The notes under the pieces: model-generated
The model's input: only the letters and a program-made list of their open reading frames with translations
Databases searched by the model: none
What the model was told of the DNA's origin: nothing
IMG/VR virus record: IMGVR_UViG_3300005861_000002
Location: 1 to 45,524 of that record
Strand: one strand, 5' to 3'
Origin: a virus
DNA: 45,524 nucleotides
Shown here: positions 1-45,524 of the stretch, in pieces
Layout of the letters: the number at the start of each line of letters is the position of its first letter
How positions within the stretch are numbered: the stretch's first letter is position 1
Made by a program: the position numbers and the translations under genes

Positions 1-370
1 GGTGTGTAGTTCGTCGTCGCGGTGAGCGTGCCGGCTTTGTTCGCGACAATCGGGGTGGTCGGCTGGTTCAGCGTGAGGCCCGCGGTCTGGCCATAGACGC
101 CAACCGAGAATTGCTGGGTGTACGGGCCATCGTTCAGGGACAGCCAGCAGTAGCCGCCCGCGCCACCGGAGCCGACGACATTCACTGACGGGGCGTACGG
201 CGTGCTGGTCCCGATGCCGACGACGCTGACTTGGCCTGCGTCCCCCAACGATGGAGTCGTGCTGGTCGTCGTGAAGATGACGGCAGCCGATGTCACGCCC
301 GACCCGAGCGTGACCTGCATGTCCTGCAGGCCGCTGATGAGGTACCCGTTGACGAAGTAGCCGGGTTCGG
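1..370 (-). repeat. Paralogous segment, copy 1 (of two)
   Basis: This segment is homologous at DNA level to about 1786-2153. It includes a 60-nt perfect match (51-110 versus 1836-1895); the flanking parts are similar but diverged. Both copies are coding in the same frame, so this is a duplicated protein module. Confidence 0.85.
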
Positions 371-398
371 TGACCGACCCGGTGACGGACCCGCTCAT
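1..398 (-). CDS. Tail-type adhesin protein, truncated by the window edge (C terminus missing)
   Basis: An open minus-strand frame starts at an ATG at 396-398 (MSGSVTGSVTEPGYFVNGYL) and runs without a stop to base 1, so about 132 N-terminal residues are visible. The residues closely match the central part of the GH16-type protein encoded at 912-3527, sharing VVGIGTSTPYAPSV, GSGGAGG and QQFSVGVYGQTAGLTLNQPT. Sixty nucleotides (51-110) are identical to 1836-1895. The shared part looks like a beta-rich Ig-like or carbohydrate-binding module followed by the start of another Ig-like domain. Its place beside fibre and glycosidase genes suggests a virion surface or adhesion role. This is inference; no catalytic motif is visible. 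No signal peptide is present, unlike its relative. Confidence 0.75.
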   Translation of the reverse strand, partial: MSGSVTGSVTEPGYFVNGYLISGLQDMQVTLGSGVTSAAVIFTTTSTTPSLGDAGQVSVVGIGTSTPYAPSVNVVGSGGAGGYCWLSLNDGPYTQQFSVGVYGQTAGLTLNQPTTPIVANKAGTLTATTNYT

Positions 399-911: not shown

Positions 912-3527
912 TTACTGACCGGGGTTGGCGGCCTGGAACTTGGCGATGTCGGCATTGATCGCCGCGTTCGCCGTATTGATGATGGAGGTCTCGGACTGGA
1001 TGTCCGTTTCCATCTGCGACAGCGTGTAGGTCGGAGCGGCCGAAGCTGCAGTCACCGTCACCGTGTTCGAGGTGGCGTTGGTGCCGTCCTGCACGAAGAT
1101 CGCGTCGCTGCCGGCCGGGATGTCGGCACCCGGCACCGCAACGGTGTAGCTGTCGGTCGCGCCCGAAACCGCGGTGACCGGCAGGCTGTAGGCGGTTCCG
1201 GCGATCGACACGCTCACGTCCGAGGCCGTGATCGCATAGTCGCTGGTGAAGGGCAGCACGGCGTTGGTGCCGGCGGTCAGGCTGGGCAGCGTGCCGAGCG
1301 TGATGCTATCCGCAGGCGGCGGCGCCGATACCACAATGCTCACCGAGTTCGACGTGGCGTTGCTGCCATCGCTCACGGTGACGGCATCCGTTCCGACCGG
1401 CAGATCGGCCGCCGGCAGCGCGACATCGTACGTGTCGGTCTGACCGGAAACCGCGGTCGGGGCCAGGCTGTAGCTCTGGCTGCCGACCTTCACGGTCACG
1501 TCCGAAGCCGTGATCGCATAGTCGGAGGTCAGCACCAGGGTCGCACCGCTGCCGCTGACAAGGCTGCTCGGGCCGGTGAGGCTGAGCGTGTCGGCGGGCG
1601 GTGCGGTCGCGGCTGCAACGGTGACGGAGATCGGCGAGGCAAGGGTCTTGCCGCCGTCGAACAGACCGATGCTGTACGTGCCAGCGGCCAGGTTCAGCGG
1701 GACCGTCACGGTGCTGCCGCTCAGGGTCGCGTTGGAGGTGCTCTCGACGCCGTTGATGCTCACGACCATTGCGGCCGGGTTGCCCGGGGTGTAGTTCGCC
1801 GTCGCCGTGATGGACTGGGTGGCACCCGCAACCAGCGGGGTGGTCGGCTGGTTCAGCGTGAGGCCCGCGGTCTGGCCATAGACGCCAACCGAGAACTGCT
1901 GAACGAAGGGGCCCTTGTTGAGCGACAGGTAGACCGAGCCGCCTGCGCCACCGGAACCAGACACGGGCACCGACGGAGCGTACGGGGTGCTGGTCCCGAT
2001 CCCGACTACCGACACGTCGTTCGGGCCGCCGAGAGTCGGCGTACCGCTGCCGGTCTCGAAGTCCACATCGGCGGAAGTGACCGCAGACCCGAGCGTCACG
2101 GGCATGTCCTGCGGGCCGCTGACGAGGTAGCCGCCGACGAAGTAGCCCGGGGCCGACATGGAGCCGGTCACGTTCGGCTGCGTCGGCGCCGAGGCGACGG
2201 TCGCAGTCACGGTCGGCGAGGTGGCGTTGCTGCCATCCTGCAGGAAGATCGCGTCGCTGCCAGCCGGCAGGTCGGTGCCCGGGACCGCGACCGTGTAGCT
2301 GTCGGTCGAGACCAGGGTGACGGGCAGGCTGTAGGCGACGCCGGCGATCGAGACGCTGATCGTCGAGCCGCTGAGCGCGTAGTCGGTCGTGAAGGGCAGC
2401 GTCGCGTTCGTGCCCGAGGTCAGGCTCGGCAGCGTGCCGAGGGTGATGGTGTCGCTCGGGGTCGAGGCGGCCACGACGTTCACGGTGATCGCGTTGGAGA
2501 CGGTGCCGTCCTGCCCATGAACGGTCAGCGAGTGGCTGCCGGTCGCGGTCAGGTCGATACCGGAAACGGTCTCGCCGCTCAGCGTGGTGCCGGTCAGCGC
2601 GGTCGAGCCGTCATAGACGGTCGCGCCGGTCACGCTGTAGTTGTCGGTGAAGGAGAGGCTGAAGGCGGTGCCTGCGGTCTCGTTACCCGACGGCGCGATC
2701 AGGGTGATCTCGTTCGCGGGAGGCGTGGTGCCGCCCGCGTTCGGGCTGCTGTAACGGACATCCGTCACATACAGACCGGCCGGGCCCGCGTTTTCGAGCA
2801 GCCCGACGCCCATCGCCTTGTTGACGCCACCGTGGGCGGCATCGGCCGGAACGAGCGAACTGGTGTCCTGGTAGTAGGGCACGCCGTCGACATAGTACGT
2901 GATCGAGCCGGCTTCCCAGTCGATGCTGTAGGTGTGCGTGGTGAGCACGTCGATACCAGACATATTGTGATAGGTCTGGCCGTTGTTGCCACTGGCGTTC
3001 GCGTCCCAATAGTGGAACGTGCTGTTGATCTGCCCGGTCGCCGTCGCACCGCCGAACGTCTCGAGCACATCGAGTTCCGACACCTTGTCGGGATACTGCG
3101 AGGGCAGCCAGACGTTGTCGGCAGGCCATAGCTCGAAGCAGATGCCAGCGCCCTGACCACTGACCGAAGCGGAGCCGGTGAACTGATACAGGCCGTAGCC
3201 GTGGCCGTACGCCTTGCCTGACGGAGGCTCCATGAACGCGGTGCCGTTCGAGCCGGTCGTCGTGTACGACGTGTTGTAGATCGCCAGGCCGCTCGATCCG
3301 GAGAACCAGAAATCTGAGGTGTTACCCCAGATGTCGCTCATCGGTGAGTTTTGGAGATCGGTCAGGCTGCCCATCTTGGTGAAATCGACATCCTCGACCA
3401 GCGTGAAATTGCTGGTGTTGAGGTTCGGTACACCCGTCAAGGCTTGAGCGCGTGCCGCGCTGCTGAGCCCGGCGACGCACAGCGCCGTCGAGGTCAGAAA
3501 GGCGAGTCTCTTGAATGATCGAGTCAT
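912..3527 (-). CDS. Secreted GH16-type glycosidase with Ig-like repeats, 871 aa
   Basis: The start is ATG at 3525-3527, preceded by GAGG at good spacing and followed by a clear Sec signal peptide (MTRSFKRLAFLTSTALCVAG then AARAQA); the frame stays open upstream but that part does not look coding. Residues about 25-270 form a concanavalin-A-like fold with the GH16 signature E-L-D-V-L-E at 151-156, giving a nucleophile/assistant/acid-base triad (E151, D153, E156). This predicts hydrolysis of a beta-linked surface polysaccharide. The remainder holds three repeats of about 90 residues (each with a SDYAITASDV-like and an AGSDAIFVQDG-like stretch) and a module shared with the truncated gene at 1-398. 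A signal peptide on a phage tail-region enzyme is unusual: it may be exported during infection as a free depolymerase, or be a host-derived cargo gene. GH16 assignment is fairly sure; substrate is unknown. Confidence 0.8.
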   Translation of the reverse strand: MTRSFKRLAFLTSTALCVAGLSSAARAQALTGVPNLNTSNFTLVEDVDFTKMGSLTDLQNSPMSDIWGNTSDFWFSGSSGLAIYNTSYTTTGSNGTAFMEPPSGKAYGHGYGLYQFTGSASVSGQGAGICFELWPADNVWLPSQYPDKVSELDVLETFGGATATGQINSTFHYWDANASGNNGQTYHNMSGIDVLTTHTYSIDWEAGSITYYVDGVPYYQDTSSLVPADAAHGGVNKAMGVGLLENAGPAGLYVTDVRYSSPNAGGTTPPANEITLIAPSGNETAGTAFSLSFTDNYSVTGATVYDGSTALTGTTLSGETVSGIDLTATGSHSLTVHGQDGTVSNAITVNVVAASTPSDTITLGTLPSLTSGTNATLPFTTDYALSGSTISVSIAGVAYSLPVTLVSTDSYTVAVPGTDLPAGSDAIFLQDGSNATSPTVTATVASAPTQPNVTGSMSAPGYFVGGYLVSGPQDMPVTLGSAVTSADVDFETGSGTPTLGGPNDVSVVGIGTSTPYAPSVPVSGSGGAGGSVYLSLNKGPFVQQFSVGVYGQTAGLTLNQPTTPLVAGATQSITATANYTPGNPAAMVVSINGVESTSNATLSGSTVTVPLNLAAGTYSIGLFDGGKTLASPISVTVAAATAPPADTLSLTGPSSLVSGSGATLVLTSDYAITASDVTVKVGSQSYSLAPTAVSGQTDTYDVALPAADLPVGTDAVTVSDGSNATSNSVSIVVSAPPPADSITLGTLPSLTAGTNAVLPFTSDYAITASDVSVSIAGTAYSLPVTAVSGATDSYTVAVPGADIPAGSDAIFVQDGTNATSNTVTVTAASAAPTYTLSQMETDIQSETSIINTANAAINADIAKFQAANPGQ
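1030..1592 (-). repeat. Tandem Ig-like repeats inside the GH16-type protein; third copy at about 2185-2465
   Basis: Two adjacent units of about 280 nt encode near-identical domains (TSDYAITASDV, DGSNATSNSV/DGTNATSNTV). A third related unit lies at about 2185-2465. These are protein-domain duplications, of the kind that gives fibre proteins variable length. Confidence 0.75.
1786..2153 (-). repeat. Paralogous segment, copy 2
   Basis: This part of the GH16-type gene is homologous to bases 1-370, with a 60-nt identical core at 1836-1895. Confidence 0.85.
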
Positions 3528-3744
3528 AAGGGTCCTCGGTTGATAGCCCTCCTGACGCCGGGACCGGACGGCCCTGGCGGGTTTGGACGCAGATAGATGC
3601 TCACAGTGATGGACGGTCGGCAAGTGTTTTGGGGGTTGCCCCTCTATTTTCTTCGGCCGTCGGCGTTCTCCCGCGGAGAGAAGGTTGTAGACCGGAGACC
3701 GCCCTGGCGCCTATAGAGGGCCGGGCGCCGGCCGCCCCTGCGGG
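3528..3744. other. Intergenic region between fibre and GH16-type genes
   Basis: I see no credible gene in these 217 nt. There is a GGCCGG-GCG-CCGGCC hairpin at 3719-3733, a second small inverted repeat around TTCTC/GAGAA near 3666-3682, and a variant of the recurrent motif (CTATAGAGGG at 3711-3720). It probably contains the end of the fibre transcript and the promoter of the GH16-type gene; no clear -35/-10 pair stands out. Confidence 0.4.
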
Positions 3745-11420: not shown

Positions 11421-14400
11421 ATGCCTGCCGACTTCTCCAAGCGCCCGCCGAAGATCCTGGTCCATCCGGCGTCCGAGCACGCGAGCGGCTTCTACCGCAT
11501 GTCGTCCCCGGCTATGGCCATGCGCGCCAACGGCGTCGCGACGACTCTGGTGGAGCGCGGGTTCCGGTCAGCGCAGGACATCGCCGCACTGAACCCGGAC
11601 GTGATCGTCGTCCAGCACCCATACACGAAGACCGAACTCGACGCGCTGCGCGCCTACCGCAACGCCTGCCCGAACGCCCACATCGTCTACGAGATCGACG
11701 ACAAGCTCTGGGACGTGCCCGAGAGCAACGGGCGCGGTCACCTGATCCCGGCCGGTATCAGGAGCCACCTGCGGCGCGGCATGCAGTTGTGCGATGCTGT
11801 CGTCACCACGACGCGCACGCTGGCCGGGCGGCTCCGCACCGAAATAAAATGCCGCGATCCGGTCGTGGTGCCGAACTTCCTGACCCAGCGGTTCTTCAAC
11901 GAGTGCGCGGCCGGTCGCTCCGATAACCGCCGCAAGCCCCCGCATGCGAAGCCGCGCGTCGGCTGGGCGGGCGGCACATCGCACGCTGCCGAGCTCAACG
12001 CCCTCGCTGACCTGATCCGCGCGACAGCCGACCGCGTCCAGTGGGTGTTCATGGGCTCCTCGCCGGTCGGGGTCGAGGGGCTGGTCGAGATCCACGCGGC
12101 CGTCGGCTACGACGCCTACCCCCGAGCCCTGACGGATCTCGATCTCGATCTGGCGATCGCGCCGTTCGGCCATACCGACTTCGACAACTGCAAGAGCGAC
12201 CTGCGCGTTCTCGAGTTCGCCGCGGCGGGCTTCCCGGTCCTGTCGAACGCCTGCTACGGCCTGTCGGTCATCGGCATGCAATTCGATCAGGACCCGGCCA
12301 TCGCCGCCGAGCGCCTGGTGCGATTCCTTCCGGGTGGCGCGGATGCCGACTACTGCGCGGCGCAGGGCGCGCTGCTGCACGAGTGGGCGAAGTCTGAGCG
12401 CACCCTCGAGAAGCATCTCGATACCTGGCTGCGCGCGTGGCTGCCGATCGGCGCTGCGCTGTTCTCGCCGCACGAAGCCGCTGACCCCACGGGCGTATTT
12501 GCACGCCTGTCGGGCACTGCCTCAATCAGCAGCGCGTCCAACGACGGCGACTACCCGATGGTCGGCCGGTTCACCCCGATCACGCCCGAACAGGCCGACG
12601 ACATCAAGCTCGCGGCGGGCCCGCTGGACCTATGGCCGGCGGCGATCCCGCACGGGCCGAACGCCACGCTGAGCCGTGCCGCGCTTGCCCGTGTCGGTGA
12701 GCCCGACTTCAAGCGGTACGCCGATCGTAACGTGGCCCTGATGGAGTGGGGCGCCCGCTGCCTGGAAATCGGGCTGAAGCACGTCGTCGACCCCGGGGCG
12801 TTCACCCGCGTCGCGGAGCCGCCGAAGATCGACGACGACACCATCCGGCAGATGCGTGAGGTGATGCAGTGGCACCCGCGCCTCGCTGACGCGATGAACG
12901 CCGTCGCCGAGGACAAGCCGTACGCCGAGGCGCGAGCCGAGCTCGATTTCGCCTTCTCGCGGATCACCTATGAGGCGCCGCCGACCGAGAGCTACGCGCA
13001 GTGGCACGAGATGCACTACGGCCGTGGATCACTGCGTCACCAAGCGCAAGATGCTGCGGTCAAGACGCTTGGAGACAAGGCGCCGAAACCCGTGTGGTCG
13101 CATGGGATTTCGTGGGTGCTGGCCGACGATGTCGAGGAAAGCTGGGTCGTCCTCTACACCGACGGGTCTCTCGACATGGCGCAGATGGCGACGATGCAGC
13201 TGGCTATCTCGGAGAATCCCGACGCGGCCCTGCTCTACGCCGACCACGACCACATCGGCAAGGACGGGCAGGCGCTGCACCCGTTCTTCAAGCCCGACTT
13301 CAACTACGAGCTCCTGCTCGCGATCGACTACATCACGCCGGTCTGCGCGTTCCGCCGCGACCTTCTGGCCCAGGTCTATGTCGAGGGCGAGAGCCTGTTC
13401 GCGACCTTGCTGCGCTACATCGAGGCACACGCCTGGCTCAATGGGGCGCCCGACGCCAGCAAGATCGTCCATGTCCCGCAGGTGCTGGCCCATCTGCCTC
13501 TGCACCTGGAAGACCCGGCCGCGCGCCAAGGCGCAGTCGTGGAGCACCTTCTGCGCACCGGGCAGCCGGCCGCCGTCGGGCGCCACCCGGCCTATGCGCC
13601 GGCGCTGCAGGTCCGCTTCCTGCCGAGCACCGACCTCCGGGTGCGAGTGGCCGTCATCGCGACGGATCGCACGCGCACCGCACGGTGCCTGCGCAGCATG
13701 TCCGCCAACCGGAGCGCCCTGCCCTATGACCTGCGTCTCGTGGGCGACGTATGGGTGCGCGAGCTTGCGGACGGCGAGCCGACCGTAGCCGATCTCGACT
13801 CGGCGGTGGCTGATCGCGAGTACGATGTCCTTGTCGTGATCGAGGACTGCGTCGAAGTGCTCGATGGCGCGATGATCGGCGACATGGCCGCACTCGCCGC
13901 GCGGCAGGGCGTCGGAATGGTGGGCGTCAAGATGCTCGCCGCCGATCACAAGACCGTCGCCCACGGCGGCGTCCTGCTCGGCACCGAGCCGACGGTCTAC
14001 GTCTTTGAGGGCATGCCGGTCGAGAACCCCGGCATAAACGGCCGCGCCGTGCTCACCGCCGAGTGGTCCGCGGTGTCCTCGGCCTGCTACGCCATCCGTC
14101 GCGAGGTTCTGGAATCGGTTGCCGCCGATGGCCCGCATATCGATTGGTGCGAAAGCCTCGGGAGCGCCGGACTGCGCAATATCGTCTGCGCCACGACGCC
14201 GGCGGTCCTGCACGGCCGCCCGGACGGCGAGGCTGCGGACCTATCAGGCTTCGCCACGGATCCGCAGGTGAACGCGAACGTTCGGCCGACGGCGTTCCTG
14301 ACGCAGCCGGCGTTGCTGCCGCCTCCGCTGCCCTGGCTCTCCGAGGACGACCAGCAGCAGATCGCCAGCCCGCAGCGCGTGCTGCTCGTCAATGGCGATC

Positions 14401-14747
14401 TGGACACTGCGCGCAAGCTGTTCTCCGAGGGCTACCTCTGCTTTCTGGCCACAGTCACGGGCGGCGAGATCGTGATCGACGGCCCGCAGATGCCGAACGT
14501 CAAGCCCTTCGACATCGCCGGCGACGCACCGCGCCTCCTGGACGCGCTGCGCGGCCTCGACATCCAGACCATCACGCTGGCCGACGCTGCCGGCGTGTCG
14601 GTGGCGGGCCTCGTCGCACTGCTGGCTCTCGAGCGCGCGTCCGAGGGCGCCATCACGGTTGCCTGGCCGGAAGCTCCGGGCGGCGAACAGAACGTCGCCA
14701 ACGTGGTCCGCAGCGCAGTCCTGAAGCACCTGACCGAGCCCGCCTAG
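11421..14747 (+). CDS. Large multidomain glycosyltransferase, 1,108 aa
   Basis: The start is ATG at 11421 with CCGGAG 7 nt upstream. Residues about 10-340 look like a GT4/GT-B glycosyltransferase: a Rossmann-like start (KILVHPASEHASGFYRM), VYEIDDKLW near 89-97, VGWAGGTSHAAEL, and the nucleotide-sugar-binding stretch FDNCKSDLRVLEFAAAGFPV. A middle region near residues 555-680 resembles a GT2/GT-A domain, with YADHDHIGKDG as a DxD-type motif and KPDFNYELLLAIDYI. A third GT2-like segment (VRVAVIATDRTRTARCLRSM and later SSACYAIRREVLESV) spans about 740-930. It likely transfers sugars onto phage protein, phage DNA or the host envelope, all inference. Its position inside the packaging block, behind its own repeat element, suggests expression linked to virion assembly. 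Domain recognition is good; acceptor unknown. Confidence 0.75.
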   Translation: MPADFSKRPPKILVHPASEHASGFYRMSSPAMAMRANGVATTLVERGFRSAQDIAALNPDVIVVQHPYTKTELDALRAYRNACPNAHIVYEIDDKLWDVPESNGRGHLIPAGIRSHLRRGMQLCDAVVTTTRTLAGRLRTEIKCRDPVVVPNFLTQRFFNECAAGRSDNRRKPPHAKPRVGWAGGTSHAAELNALADLIRATADRVQWVFMGSSPVGVEGLVEIHAAVGYDAYPRALTDLDLDLAIAPFGHTDFDNCKSDLRVLEFAAAGFPVLSNACYGLSVIGMQFDQDPAIAAERLVRFLPGGADADYCAAQGALLHEWAKSERTLEKHLDTWLRAWLPIGAALFSPHEAADPTGVFARLSGTASISSASNDGDYPMVGRFTPITPEQADDIKLAAGPLDLWPAAIPHGPNATLSRAALARVGEPDFKRYADRNVALMEWGARCLEIGLKHVVDPGAFTRVAEPPKIDDDTIRQMREVMQWHPRLADAMNAVAEDKPYAEARAELDFAFSRITYEAPPTESYAQWHEMHYGRGSLRHQAQDAAVKTLGDKAPKPVWSHGISWVLADDVEESWVVLYTDGSLDMAQMATMQLAISENPDAALLYADHDHIGKDGQALHPFFKPDFNYELLLAIDYITPVCAFRRDLLAQVYVEGESLFATLLRYIEAHAWLNGAPDASKIVHVPQVLAHLPLHLEDPAARQGAVVEHLLRTGQPAAVGRHPAYAPALQVRFLPSTDLRVRVAVIATDRTRTARCLRSMSANRSALPYDLRLVGDVWVRELADGEPTVADLDSAVADREYDVLVVIEDCVEVLDGAMIGDMAALAARQGVGMVGVKMLAADHKTVAHGGVLLGTEPTVYVFEGMPVENPGINGRAVLTAEWSAVSSACYAIRREVLESVAADGPHIDWCESLGSAGLRNIVCATTPAVLHGRPDGEAADLSGFATDPQVNANVRPTAFLTQPALLPPPLPWLSEDDQQQIASPQRVLLVNGDLDTARKLFSEGYLCFLATVTGGEIVIDGPQMPNVKPFDIAGDAPRLLDALRGLDIQTITLADAAGVSVAGLVALLALERASEGAITVAWPEAPGGEQNVANVVRSAVLKHLTEPA

Positions 14748-41558: not shown

Positions 41559-41822
41559 TCAGAGGGTCAGATCGCGTATCCAGTTATTCGGGTCGCCGAG
41601 CGGCTGCTGCGCGACGAGAGAGAAGCCATCGCCGTGAAAGGCCCACCCCATGCCGTGCGAGCAGAAAGACTTCACCGACTGATCGACAGCGGGTCGTGCT
41701 GTCTCCGGGATGGCGGGCAGAAGCGCCATCACCATGCGGCGCACGTCCGAAAAGTGCGGCACCGTTCGGACAACGTGACGCTCGCCGATCCAGACGCGCA
41801 GGGTCCAGGGACTGTTCGGCAT
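41559..41822 (-). CDS. Hypothetical protein, 87 aa
   Basis: ATG at 41820-41822 overlaps the TAA stop of the methyltransferase gene (TAATG), so translation is coupled. The protein begins MPNSPWTLRVWIGERHVVRT and is mixed alpha/beta with several Trp and His. No family recognised. The frame is open upstream but shadows the methyltransferase gene. Confidence 0.6.
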   Translation of the reverse strand: MPNSPWTLRVWIGERHVVRTVPHFSDVRRMVMALLPAIPETARPAVDQSVKSFCSHGMGWAFHGDGFSLVAQQPLGDPNNWIRDLTL

Positions 41823-42400
41823 TAGAGCCTGCGATACACCGTGATGACACGAAACCTGTGATTGCTGGATTTGAACATTCCAATTATGGCTTCGACCGCG
41901 AACGTATCTTTCCGCCACATCGGCAAGACTTGGTCGAGGAACACGACATGCGCGCCGCTCGGCAGGCGAGCGAGGGCTCTCATGACGAGATTGCGCTTCA
42001 CCATCGTGGTGCCGTAGTGCTCGCAATCCTCGATCGAATAGGGAGGATCGGCCAGCACGAGGTCATACTGCTCGAGCGGGACATTCAGCAGGGTCTGCGC
42101 GTCGTCGACATAGGTCGCGCCGCGATCCGGGTTCAGATCGACGGTATCGCCGGGGAAGATGTCGAGGTCGACCATGCCGCTGAACAGGTGCAGCGTCTTC
42201 ACCTTGTCGGGGAACAACGCCCTGACGCGCTTGAGGTAGCCGGCCGGGTAGCCACCATAGTACTTCGACTTGACCCGGTAGTCGTTCCCCATGATCCACA
42301 TGCCTTGCGCGCGGCCGTCCGCGCCTATGAACATGGACTGCGGGAAGCCGGTCGCCTTGGCGTAGTTGTCGAGCCTCTCCGGCCAGGACATGGCGCTCAT
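41822..42400 (-). CDS. DNA methyltransferase (DPPY type, probably N6-adenine), 192 aa
   Basis: The start is ATG at 42398-42400 (ATGA overlap with the HD gene); upstream open frame is a shadow. An SAM-binding segment TLHLFSGMVDLDIF near residue 69 and the catalytic DPPY at 118-121 (LVLADPPYSIEDCEHYG) are visible, the usual order of motifs I and IV in amino-methyltransferases. It probably protects phage DNA against host restriction or takes part in regulation. Recognition-domain size is small for a 192-residue enzyme, so specificity may be broad or unusual. Confidence 0.78.
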   Translation of the reverse strand: MSAMSWPERLDNYAKATGFPQSMFIGADGRAQGMWIMGNDYRVKSKYYGGYPAGYLKRVRALFPDKVKTLHLFSGMVDLDIFPGDTVDLNPDRGATYVDDAQTLLNVPLEQYDLVLADPPYSIEDCEHYGTTMVKRNLVMRALARLPSGAHVVFLDQVLPMWRKDTFAVEAIIGMFKSSNHRFRVITVYRRL

Positions 42401-42966
42401 CCTTGCACCTGCTCCGGGAACAGTCGGCCGAACGCCTCGAGGAACTCCTTCTCTGCGCGGCGCCAGGTCCACTCTTCGATCTCGATGGCGGCAGGGCGCG
42501 GATAACACGCTGCATCCCACCAGCGGGGCCCGTATGTCGGCTCGTTGTGCAGTTGCGACGCCTCGGTCACCAGGGCCTGAAGGTCTGCCCAATGCACGTC
42601 CCGCGGAAGATCTTCAACCAATCCCCACTGCTTGGCCATTGCCGACCAGATCGCGGCTTCTATGCCGCGGAAGTCGGCCATGCCCGCGACGCGTTTGAGT
42701 GGAGTGACCACGTCACCGATGATCGCCTCGGGCGCGTCGTGCATGAGCGCCTCCCGCCGCCAGAACGGATGCGTTAGCTGGACGACCAGGAGACTGTGCT
42801 GCGCGATCGAGATGGGGAACTTCGTGTGGCCGTTGAAGCGGTTCGAGCAGGCCAGCGCGTGGGCGATCTCTTCGATGTCGAAGTCGCCCGGGCGCGGATC
42901 CAGCGGCCATTGCTGCCTGCCGCTGAAGGTGTGGATGAAGTCGCCGCGGCGCGCAGTGCCGTTCAT
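42397..42966 (-). CDS. HD-domain phosphohydrolase (YfbR-like 5'-nucleotidase), 189 aa
   Basis: ATG at 42964-42966 has GGAGG seven nt upstream, better than an ATG 15 nt earlier. The HD signature is present: H57 (SIAQHSLL), H76-D77 (ALMHDAPE), D85 (IGDVVTPLKR). Family members remove phosphate from deoxynucleoside monophosphates; phage versions are thought to shape the nucleotide pool. The neighbour at 42968-43588 is a diverged paralog without the HD pair. The stop overlaps the DPPY methyltransferase start. Confidence 0.82.
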   Translation of the reverse strand: MNGTARRGDFIHTFSGRQQWPLDPRPGDFDIEEIAHALACSNRFNGHTKFPISIAQHSLLVVQLTHPFWRREALMHDAPEAIIGDVVTPLKRVAGMADFRGIEAAIWSAMAKQWGLVEDLPRDVHWADLQALVTEASQLHNEPTYGPRWWDAACYPRPAAIEIEEWTWRRAEKEFLEAFGRLFPEQVQG

Positions 42967-43588: not shown

Positions 43589-43887
43589 TAGGCGACTTGA
43601 TCCTTTGCGGCGTTGGCCGGGGCCGATACGGTCCACAGGCCTGTCGAGCCCCTCGGCCTGCGCAGCACCATGCCGATGTGCTGCATTGCGGCCTGAGCCT
43701 CCTCTGTGTCAGTCGTCACGCCGCAGACCGAGTAGTCTGTGAGGCGCGTGAGCTCGCGGAACTCCTTGCGGCTGCGGCAGGCGGCGATCACGCGCTGACC
43801 TGCGTACTCGCCGGCGAAAACGCGCAACTCGAACTGGGTGAGCAGGCGCTTGTGCGTGCGGGTGACGAGCGGGCGGCTCCGGGTCAC
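43588..43887 (-). CDS. Hypothetical protein, 99 aa
   Basis: Best start is GTG at 43885-43887, in an overlap with the methyltransferase stop (GTGA); an in-frame extension upstream shadows the methyltransferase. The protein is basic and helix/strand mixed (TRTHKRLLTQFELRVFAGEY, SRKEFRELTRLTDYSVCGVT). I do not recognise a family; it lies in the DNA/nucleotide gene group. Confidence 0.55.
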   Translation of the reverse strand: MTRSRPLVTRTHKRLLTQFELRVFAGEYAGQRVIAACRSRKEFRELTRLTDYSVCGVTTDTEEAQAAMQHIGMVLRRPRGSTGLWTVSAPANAAKDQVA

Positions 43888-45524
43888 GACTGCGGCTCCG
43901 TCCGCACGACCTCGGCAACGAGGCGCTCGGCGACCCACTGCACGCACGGGATAGCCCAACCATTGCCGATCGCCTTGTACCGGGGACCGTCCGGGCATTC
44001 GTCGGCGGGCTTGCCCTTCCAAGGGATCATTGTGAACCCGTCGGGCAGTCCCTGAAGCCGCTCACACTCAAGAGGTGTCAGGCGGCGCACGGCGCTTCCT
44101 ATCTGAGCGGCCGGGTAACTCTGACCCGGCTTGCCTCCGCCGCCACCCAGAGTCCCGACAATAGAGCCGTCTCCACCCTCGAAACGGACTTCGGCGCGGC
44201 TATTCTCCGCGAAGGCCAGGACCGGAATGATAGGATTACCCCGACCGGTTCCGTCCTCGCTGGCATCCGCACCCTCAGCCTTTAAGGCGTGCGTGATCTG
44301 GCCGGTGACGCAGAAGGTCTCAGTCTCGAAGTCGAGCCGGCCGTGCGGGCCGTGCGGGCCGCCATGGGCGTTTAGCGCCGTCGAGACATTGATCGGGCCG
44401 GACGTGTTGTTGCCGCCGAAGGCGATCAGGTGCTCACCAACCTCGTTTCGGCTCCAGTCTCCAGAGCTTGTTTCAAGGCTTGCGGCAACTTTTTGCCGCG
44501 CTTCTCGGCCCGGCGGAGAATGCCGCTGCACGCCTTCGAGCTCAAGAAGAACCGCTGTGGGATCGAACCCCTCTCGAGCACTTGCGACAACGAACACGCG
44601 ACGGCGTCGTTGGGCGAGTCCGAAATGTTGGGCATCAAGGACTCGCCAGGCTGCTTTGCGGCGCGGTCCCACGACCATACCCGCGTTACCCCAGCGTCCT
44701 CGAGCATTTGGAAGGAGGGGCTGCTGCGCTCCAACAAGTCCTGCGAGGAAGCAGCCGAAAGCGTTGTCTTTGACACTGAGGACTCCAGGCACGTTTTCCC
44801 AAAGGCAAGCCGCGGGGCTAAGGCCAAGCATGGCCCGAAAGTCGTCAATGGCATCGAGAAGCATGACGAAGGCAAGCGACAGGTTGCCGCGCGCGTCATC
44901 AAGCGAGCGCCGTGCGCCGGCAATCGAGAATGCCTGGCAATTGTGAACGATGATACCGTCTGCCAAGTAGGAGTTGTCGTCGGCAACCTCAAGGTTGAAC
45001 ACCTGCTTCCGCTCACCCGTATCGACCATCTGGCGAACCAGTTGCCAGCGAATGCCGTCCATCTCGACGGAAGACCGCTCAGAACGGCCGAAGATCACCG
45101 TGAAGAACGGCTGCTGCCGCACGATGCGGCCCTCGATCACCTTCTCCGCAGGCACGGCCGACTTGCGAAGTTGGACCGCAAACCCGAGGGTCACACCAAG
45201 GCTACGCAGGCCGTGCGCAAGAGCCCGTGACGTCGTGCTCGCCTTCAGGTGCTCCCAATCTTGCATTCCGGATGTCGAACCGTCCGTCCAGCCGTATCCG
45301 CGGACGAACGCAGCCCGCAGGTTCTCCGGGGCACCGAGAAGCCAAAGCGGGACCGACTTGCTGCTGGCGCCACTACCGAATTCCTCGTGCAGCCAGCGGG
45401 CAATAGCACGTCCGTGCGCTGCCACCTTAAGAACGCCTTTCAAAACCACCCTTGCAGAGCGCGCAGGCAAATGAGCGAGCACGCGAGCGAGGTAAAGGCG
45501 TGATGGATGTCGAGCTTGCGCTCG
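43884..45524 (-). CDS. Cytosine-5 DNA methyltransferase interrupted by an intein; N terminus beyond window
   Basis: From 44939 down to 43884 the frame encodes the C-terminal part of a C5 methyltransferase: catalytic motif IV CQAFSIAG, ENV motif WENVPGVLS near 44776-44802, QRRRRVF near 44590-44610, a target-recognition region, and motifs IX-X (RRLTPLECERLQGLPDGF, RYKAIGNGWAIP). Directly before the catalytic Cys (44937-44939) lies an intein C terminus, DNSYLADGIIVHN, and further upstream a DOD-type homing endonuclease part (LRAAFVRGYGWTDGSTSG). The frame stays open to the window edge (45524), so the first methyltransferase half and intein start are outside. Splicing would restore the Pro-Cys-Gln active site. 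Confidence 0.85.
   Translation of the reverse strand, partial: RAQARHPSRLYLARVLAHLPARSARVVLKGVLKVAAHGRAIARWLHEEFGSGASSKSVPLWLLGAPENLRAAFVRGYGWTDGSTSGMQDWEHLKASTTSRALAHGLRSLGVTLGFAVQLRKSAVPAEKVIEGRIVRQQPFFTVIFGRSERSSVEMDGIRWQLVRQMVDTGERKQVFNLEVADDNSYLADGIIVHNCQAFSIAGARRSLDDARGNLSLAFVMLLDAIDDFRAMLGLSPAACLWENVPGVLSVKDNAFGCFLAGLVGAQQPLLPNARGRWGNAGMVVGPRRKAAWRVLDAQHFGLAQRRRRVFVVASAREGFDPTAVLLELEGVQRHSPPGREARQKVAASLETSSGDWSRNEVGEHLIAFGGNNTSGPINVSTALNAHGGPHGPHGRLDFETETFCVTGQITHALKAEGADASEDGTGRGNPIIPVLAFAENSRAEVRFEGGDGSIVGTLGGGGGKPGQSYPAAQIGSAVRRLTPLECERLQGLPDGFTMIPWKGKPADECPDGPRYKAIGNGWAIPCVQWVAERLVAEVVRTEPQS
44940..45524 (-). mobile_element. Intein (C-terminal part) with LAGLIDADG-type endonuclease domain
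   Basis: About 195 residues of the intein are visible. The C-terminal splicing block ends in the usual His-Asn, with Asn at 44940-44942 followed by Cys as +1 extein residue. GYGWTDGSTSG corresponds to a dodecapeptide motif. Blocks A and B lie beyond the right edge. The intein host protein is the C5 methyltransferase. Confidence 0.82.

What the first reader, a model, noticed from the sequence alone, without database searches (positions are those of the whole stretch)
44900..45524. Intein inserted exactly at the catalytic cysteine of a phage C5 methyltransferase
Seen: intein-type ending DNSYLADGIIVHN is followed without a break by CQAFSIAG, the catalytic motif IV of C5 methyltransferases. The +1 residue needed for splicing is therefore the catalytic Cys itself. 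Known: inteins sit in conserved active-site positions, and Cys/Ser/Thr is required at +1. Inference: methyltransferase activity depends entirely on splicing, so DNA methylation could be timed by splicing conditions such as redox state. Uncommon host protein for an intein as far as I know.
Basis: partly seen in the sequence, partly recalled or inferred. Interest (0 to 1): 0.85.

Follow-up and report, generated by a model that had tools for sequence, protein, structure and literature searches.

The report
Intein at methyltransferase active site, IS-interrupted
A self-splicing protein element sits directly in front of the catalytic cysteine of a phage DNA cytosine methyltransferase; here it is cut in two by a transposable element, but intact copies of the same arrangement occur in many phages, including about a third of the P1-like phages of E. 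coli.

Summary
On the minus strand an intein C-terminus (…DNSYLADGIIVHN) runs straight into CQAFSIAG, and that Cys aligns with catalytic Cys81 of M.HhaI. Two corrections follow. (1) The window does not simply end inside the intein. Its last 94 nt (45431-45524) are the end of an IS5-family (IS1031-type) insertion sequence typical of Acetobacteraceae, followed by a TNA target triplet. The ORF's first 32 residues are IS DNA read out of frame. The intein N-half and the methyltransferase N-half lie beyond this IS, outside the record, so this copy is probably dead. (2) The arrangement is not a one-off. I found 61 distinct C5-methyltransferase inteins at exactly this position in phages and bacterial genomes. 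In P1-like phages of E. coli it is polymorphic: 151 genomes occupied, 333 with the empty site. Inteins are near-identical there while flanking DNA differs, the mark of homing. The window's intein is not close to those of its nearest methyltransferase relatives, so one site was occupied by more than one intein lineage. Best reading: a mobile LAGLIDADG intein parasitising a Pro-Cys active site. Splicing as a redox or timing switch is untested and disfavoured by the abundance of empty alleles.

The parts
45431..45524 (-). 3' end of an IS5-family (IS1031-type) insertion sequence: last ~28 codons of the transposase (...ERKLDIHHAFTSLACSLICLRALQGWF*) and right terminal repeat GGTTTTGAAAGGCGTTC; runs off the record
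   Evidence: 99 nt at 99% identity to the start of another phage contig in a different context; 73-81% identity over most of the query to IS5-family elements of Acetobacteraceae plasmids, some annotated as IS5 family transposase; end and terminal repeat fixed by alignment
45428..45430 (-). TTA, the TNA-type target triplet next to the IS end
   Evidence: TNA flanks both ends of complete relatives: TTA/TTA in Lichenicola L096, TAA/TAA in Acidibrevibacterium L100
44940..45430 (-). C-terminal half of a LAGLIDADG intein (about 163 aa, KVAAHG...IIVHN); corresponds to P1 intein residues ~182-341
45279..45305 (-). second LAGLIDADG motif of the intein endonuclease (VRGYGWTDG); acidic residue kept
   Evidence: alignment with P1 LQGYLDTDG and L061 LRGYLDTDG
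44940..45002 (-). intein C-terminal splicing blocks F and G (VFNLEVADDNSYLADGIIVHN)
   Evidence: NCBIfam intein_Cterm above cut-off; invariant V, D, H, N in alignment
44937..44939 (-). +1 Cys = catalytic Cys of methyltransferase motif IV (P)CQAFS
   Evidence: aligns with M.HhaI Cys81; Pfam DNA_methylase column 71
43884..44939 (-). C-terminal half of C5 cytosine methyltransferase, from motif IV on, open to its stop

Best explanation
The region is what remains, in this record, of a phage C5 cytosine methyltransferase gene that was invaded twice. First, a LAGLIDADG homing-endonuclease intein settled exactly between the conserved Pro and the catalytic Cys of motif IV. Intact copies of this arrangement would splice by the standard class 1 route: Cys1 attacks the -1 carbonyl, the +1 Cys takes over the N-extein, and the terminal Asn cyclises, which recreates Pro-Cys and so the active enzyme. 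The endonuclease would cut intein-free alleles so that the intein is copied in. Second, in this phage an IS5/IS1031-type element jumped into the endonuclease part of the intein (TNA target), separating the methyltransferase N-half from the C-half. As assembled, no splicing-competent precursor can be made, so the methyltransferase is most likely inactive. Shown: the intein/catalytic-Cys junction, the IS end, and the recurrence, polymorphism and homing footprint in relatives. Inferred: splicing, endonuclease activity and loss of function in this copy.
For: Junction and domains. IS end with TNA triplet and independent IS5-family relatives. Intact relatives with N-half, C1, block B and both LAGLIDADG motifs: P1-type Dmt, L061/L062, EBPR siphovirus 2, Lana, B22, Nyseid. 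61 distinct cases at the same residue: -1 Pro in 52, C1 in 61, HN in 61. Fold: AlphaFold2 model of the L101 intein, mean pLDDT 84.6, best PDB match the TliVMA intein with endonuclease (Z 26.8, rmsd 3.8, 310 residues), then PI-PkoII and PI-SceI. Mobility: 151 occupied against 333 empty P1-type sites. Among 27 occupied alleles the intein differs 0.6% while the 225 nt on its left differ 7.5%; occupied-empty divergence is 18.8% in the 15 nt left of the site against 4-8% further out; the -1 Pro codon is CCA in 27/27 occupied and CCT in 6/6 empty. Inteins similar in dissimilar methyltransferases and the reverse.
Against: No splicing, cleavage or methylation was measured. The N-half of this gene is not in the record, so the arrangement beyond the IS is inferred from relatives. 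The +1 Cys and HN uniformity among the 61 is partly imposed by the search pattern; the pattern-free searches also find other host proteins.
Confidence: 0.8

Rival explanations
1. The IS junction is real but present in only part of the phage population (or is a contig-end artefact); most copies of the gene are intact and splice normally.
For: The record ends inside the IS, as assemblies do at repeats; the intein C-part and methyltransferase C-half have no stop or frameshift and the C-terminal splicing blocks are intact.
Against: The assembler followed the IS path for 94 nt, and a TNA triplet sits at the exact boundary, which a random chimera would rarely give.
Confidence: 0.13
2. The intein is a post-translational switch: because +1 is the catalytic Cys, splicing conditions (redox, temperature) time DNA methylation in infection.
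For: Anatomy: the precursor lacks the contiguous Pro-Cys loop. Conditional splicing of other inteins is known (own knowledge). P1 dmt lies behind a C1-controlled operator in the P1 record, so it is a regulated gene.
Against: About 333 of 484 P1-carrying E. coli genomes have the same gene without the intein; the patchy, homing-like distribution fits a parasite; this copy is interrupted by an IS.
Confidence: 0.08
3. The IS turned a contiguous intein into a two-piece one: the halves are translated separately and trans-splice, keeping the methyltransferase alive.
For: The IS sits in the endonuclease part, the region where natural split inteins are broken (own knowledge); the C-part has an in-frame GTG near the IS end.
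Against: No ribosome-binding site, promoter or expression evidence was sought or found; the N-half is not in the record; half an endonuclease remains attached.
Confidence: 0.03
4. One reading: a continuous intein whose N-terminus lies just beyond the record edge, with residues 1-32 of the ORF part of the intein.
For: The frame stays open to the edge; a profile can be stretched into this part.
Against: Those 94 nt match IS5-family ends in unrelated contexts and in annotated transposases, in a different reading frame.
Confidence: 0.02

Closest known systems
Intein in the Dmt methyltransferase of P1-like phages (RCS47, Ro157c2YLVW, P1 isolate OP279344)
   Same: Insertion at the same residue (GGTP|C...HN|CQAFS), same methyltransferase family, LAGLIDADG intein of ~340 aa
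   Different: P1 intein is complete (341 aa) and the window's is cut by an IS; the intein parts are only about one third identical although the methyltransferase halves are close relatives; in these records it is annotated only as methyltransferase
Mycobacteriophage DNMT-1/DNMT-2 and actinophage methylase inteins (PMC5050341, PMC9957025)
   Same: Inteins in phage DNA methyltransferases, patchy distribution, LAGLIDADG endonuclease
   Different: DNMT-1/2 are N4/N6-type methylases, which lack the C5 Pro-Cys motif; no C5 enzyme is named in the parts read
Thymidylate synthase intein of Aeromonas phages PS1/PS2
   Same: Related intein placed before a Cys preceded by Pro (TP|C...HN|CH), in another pyrimidine C5-methylating enzyme with a catalytic Pro-Cys (catalytic role from own knowledge)
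   Different: Different host enzyme; long branch in the tree
PI-SceI, PI-PkoII, TliVMA inteins (solved structures)
   Same: Hint splicing domain with inserted LAGLIDADG endonuclease
   Different: Other host proteins; 13-21% sequence identity in the structural alignments
IS1031-type IS5-family elements of Acetobacteraceae
   Same: Transposase C-terminus, terminal repeat and TNA duplication
   Different: Only 94 nt of the element are in the record

Membership tests
Class 1 intein | C-terminal block F/G ending in His-Asn | tested here: met
Class 1 intein | +1 Cys/Ser/Thr on the C-extein | tested here: met
   Cys at 44937-44939
Class 1 intein | N-terminal Cys/Ser with blocks A and B | tested here: inconclusive
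   Beyond the IS and the record edge here; met in relatives (C1 61/61, block B 60/61)
Class 1 intein | In-frame insertion with an intein-free homolog that keeps the host protein whole | tested here: inconclusive
   Shown for the P1 pair: 1023 nt insertion exactly before TGT CAG; the left boundary of the window copy is not in the record
Class 1 intein | Splicing activity | not testable with these tools
   Needs expression
LAGLIDADG homing endonuclease | Two LAGLIDADG motifs with acidic residues | tested here: inconclusive
   Second motif present in the window with D; first motif lies beyond the IS; P1 and most relatives have both
C5 cytosine methyltransferase | Motif IV catalytic Cys-Gln and C-terminal motifs | tested here: met
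   Pfam DNA_methylase 1.4e-19; HhaI Cys81 alignment
C5 cytosine methyltransferase | N-terminal SAM motif I and the Pro before the catalytic Cys | tested here: inconclusive
   Absent from the record; present in intact relatives
IS5 family, IS1031-type | Terminal repeat and TNA target duplication | tested here: inconclusive
   Right end and one TNA triplet seen in the window; both ends verified only in complete relatives
IS5 family, IS1031-type | DDE transposase | tested here: inconclusive
   Only the last ~28 codons are in the record; they match annotated IS5 transposases

The most novel reading that the evidence does not exclude
A widespread intein clan specialised for a Pro-Cys junction uses the catalytic Cys of pyrimidine-C5-methylating enzymes (C5 methyltransferases and, in one phage lineage, thymidylate synthase) as its splicing nucleophile, so that the enzyme is catalytically silent until splicing has recreated its active site, and some phages exploit this delay to time DNA methylation.
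Probability: 0.1. Interest if true: 0.7.

Novelty: new member of a known kind. Interest (0 to 1): 0.45.

Why it matters
Phage methyltransferases protect DNA from restriction, so an element that blocks them until it splices out touches the phage-host arms race. The P1 case is directly useful: a model phage-plasmid exists in nature with and without the intein at an exact site, apparently unannotated, so the cost, homing and any regulatory effect of an active-site intein can be measured in a laboratory E. coli system. The site also forces a proline before the splice junction, which (own knowledge) is usually unfavourable for splicing, so these inteins may be useful chemistry. The window copy also shows how a reading frame running off a contig can mislead: its end is an insertion sequence.

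Tried and rejected
Rejected: residues 1-32 of the ORF as intein (IS DNA). Rejected: N-half elsewhere in the window (six-frame profile search). Literature: open-access full-text searches for an intein in a C5/Dcm methyltransferase or in P1 returned no description; phage methylase inteins of actinophages were found. InBase and subscription papers (e.g. a 2016 intein survey) could not be read, so absence of a report is not established. The tree places the window's partial intein only weakly (no starred set, long branch), so I claim only that it is not close to the inteins of its nearest methyltransferase relatives.

Full report
Check of the observation. The minus-strand ORF 43884-45524 reads ...VFNLEVADDNSYLADGIIVHN|CQAFSIAGARRSLDDARGN... 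with no break. Pfam finds DNA_methylase (1.4e-19), its best stretch beginning at profile column 71 directly at the Cys, and weaker LAGLIDADG_3 and Intein_splicing matches; NCBIfam intein_Cterm passes its cut-off. The Cys is residue 1 of the methyltransferase piece and aligns with Cys81 of M.HhaI (CQAFSI against CQAFSI; that stretch alone scores low, but the whole protein reaches E 2.7e-4).

A search for relatives of the intein piece returned one contig, L094, that matches only its first 32 residues, at 100%. At DNA level 99 nt of the window's right end match the start of L094 at 99% identity and then both diverge. In L094 this DNA abuts an ORF that I read as a phage tail-sheath gene, of a phage other than the window's (not tested against a family library). 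In another frame the shared DNA encodes FNKFRRLTIRYERKLDIHHAFTSLACSLICLRALQGWF*, the end of an IS5-type transposase. Acetobacteraceae plasmids (Lichenicola, Roseomonas, Kozakia, Acidibrevibacterium) hold 73-81% identical DNA, several under the annotation 'IS5 family transposase'. Two complete copies have this end, its inverse at the other end, and TNA duplications around them (TTA/TTA, TAA/TAA); the window has GGTTTTGAAAGGCGTTC followed by TTA. That TNA is the mark of the IS1031 group is own knowledge. So 45431-45524 is an IS end, 45428-45430 is the target triplet, and the real intein piece is 44940-45430. The TTA falls in the codons for I-K of the conserved 'SIKV', position 182 of the 341-residue P1 intein, between the two LAGLIDADG motifs. 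The N-half is nowhere else in the window, and the record (45,524 bases, a virus record) ends here. As assembled, the gene is interrupted and probably inactive; a mixed population cannot be excluded.

Intact relatives. tblastn against phages gave, at the top, dmt of P1-like phages covering intein and methyltransferase alike. Their Dmt reads GGTP|CFTAGHMVLC...VEGDHSYILNGAVVHN|CQAFSIAG with the N-terminal half upstream, whereas reference P1 (AF234173) reads GTPCQAFSIAG with no insert. The insert is 1023 nt, exactly before TGT CAG. IMG/VR contigs L061/L062 have the same. Pfam finds Hint, LAGLIDADG and/or intein-splicing domains and an interrupted DNA_methylase in P1, L061, EBPR siphovirus 2, Lana, B22 and Nyseid; several of these matches are under the curated cut-offs. 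A model of the L101 intein (mean pLDDT 84.6) matches homing-endonuclease inteins of solved structure over about 300 residues (TliVMA Z 26.8; PI-PkoII 25.4; PI-SceI 19-21; Foldseek agrees).

Breadth. With the C-terminal pattern as a bait I found relatives in viral contigs and in bacterial and archaeal genome contigs. After removing near-duplicates, 61 distinct C5-methyltransferase inteins remain, all directly before the motif IV Cys: -1 is Pro in 52, Asp 4, Glu 3, Thr 1, Ile 1; +1,+2 are CQ in 48 and CT in 13; C1 in 61; 59 keep at least one LAGLIDADG-like motif, and two (L179, 218 aa; L207, 238 aa) are mini-inteins. That these are methyltransferases was tested by Pfam for the named phages; for the rest it is read from the motif around the junction. 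HN and +1 Cys are partly built into the bait. The bait-free searches still return C5 methyltransferases as the nearest hosts, then thymidylate synthase of Aeromonas phages PS1/PS2 (also TP|C...HN|CH), mycobacteriophage methylases, lactococcal anaerobic ribonucleotide reductase, a portal protein, a terminase and a DNA polymerase.

Mobility. In E. coli complete genomes 151 hold the occupied P1-type site and 333 the empty one (two separate queries, so the shares are approximate). Plasmid records add Salmonella and Shigella. Among 27 occupied loci the intein differs by 0.6% on average (1.1% at most) while the 225 nt to its left differ by 7.5%; occupied-to-empty divergence peaks at 18.8% in the 15 nt left of the site; the -1 Pro codon is CCA in all 27 occupied and CCT in all 6 empty alleles (one search is an earlier version that still held two loci I then removed). 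This is the footprint expected from recent spread with co-conversion; six empty alleles are a small sample. Across the family, intein and extein similarity correlate only modestly (Mantel rho 0.32, 0 of 500 permutations as high), with clear mismatches: L129's intein groups with P1-type inteins (starred set in the tree) in a different methyltransferase type, and the window's methyltransferase half is 58-66% identical to L106, L061, L104, L103 and L125 while its intein piece is closest (43%) to inteins of a different methyltransferase type, L135 and L187. The window's place in the tree is unsure.

Mechanism. Shown: anatomy, exact site, polymorphism, homing footprint. Inferred from the established class 1 pathway: splicing through Cys1, +1 Cys and the terminal Asn. 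A C5 methyltransferase cut in its catalytic loop should be inactive until spliced, so intact copies should depend on splicing; that follows from enzyme mechanism and was not measured. Nothing found here supports a regulatory use, and the empty alleles show that the phage does without it.

Comparison with known systems. Inteins in phage DNA methylases are known from mycobacteriophages (DNMT-1 and DNMT-2, N4/N6 type; PMC5050341) and actinophages (PMC9957025; PMC11855218). Inteins at conserved active-site positions are the rule (own knowledge). I found no open-access description of a C5-methyltransferase intein or of the P1 intein, but InBase and subscription papers were out of reach. I rate it a new member of a known kind, with an interesting site.

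Context. The window is a contractile-tailed phage (tail sheath, baseplate J, terminase, portal, major head protein). The IS points to a host among the Acetobacteraceae; this is an inference.

Noticed in passing
L094 (IMGVR_UViG_3300025503_000167) 1-126 and ORF 83-1174 on the minus strand: The same IS end sits at the end of a tail-sheath-like gene of a different phage, with a TAA triplet: the same element has hit two different phage genomes.
   Followed up: partly
L084 3239-6280, L082, L083; E. coli plasmid records: The P1 Dmt intein is present in about a third of P1-like phage-plasmids of E. coli and is annotated only as a methyltransferase; reference P1 lacks it.
   Followed up: yes
L088 1724-3560; L126, L127: In Mannheimia phage 587AP2 the intein is intact, but the methyltransferase body after CQ is deleted and the rest lies in another frame: an intein stranded in a dead host gene.
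   Followed up: partly
L089 1262-3520: Aeromonas phage PS1 thymidylate synthase carries a related intein placed before a Pro-preceded Cys at the expected catalytic position.
   Followed up: partly
L179 and L207: Mini-inteins of 218 and 238 aa at the same methyltransferase site, without LAGLIDADG motifs.
   Followed up: no
window 11421-14747 +: 1108-aa ORF next to the portal gene with a glycosyltransferase match (phrog_7162) in residues 17-275 only; the rest is unassigned.
   Followed up: no
window 1-398 and 912-3623, minus strand: The left edge of the record lies in an ORF that resembles part of a large neighbouring protein with a glycosyl hydrolase 16 match, so the record may break at a repeat there too.
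   Followed up: no
window 41822-42592 -: A second DNA methyltransferase-like gene (phrog_3816) lies close to the interrupted C5 methyltransferase.
   Followed up: no
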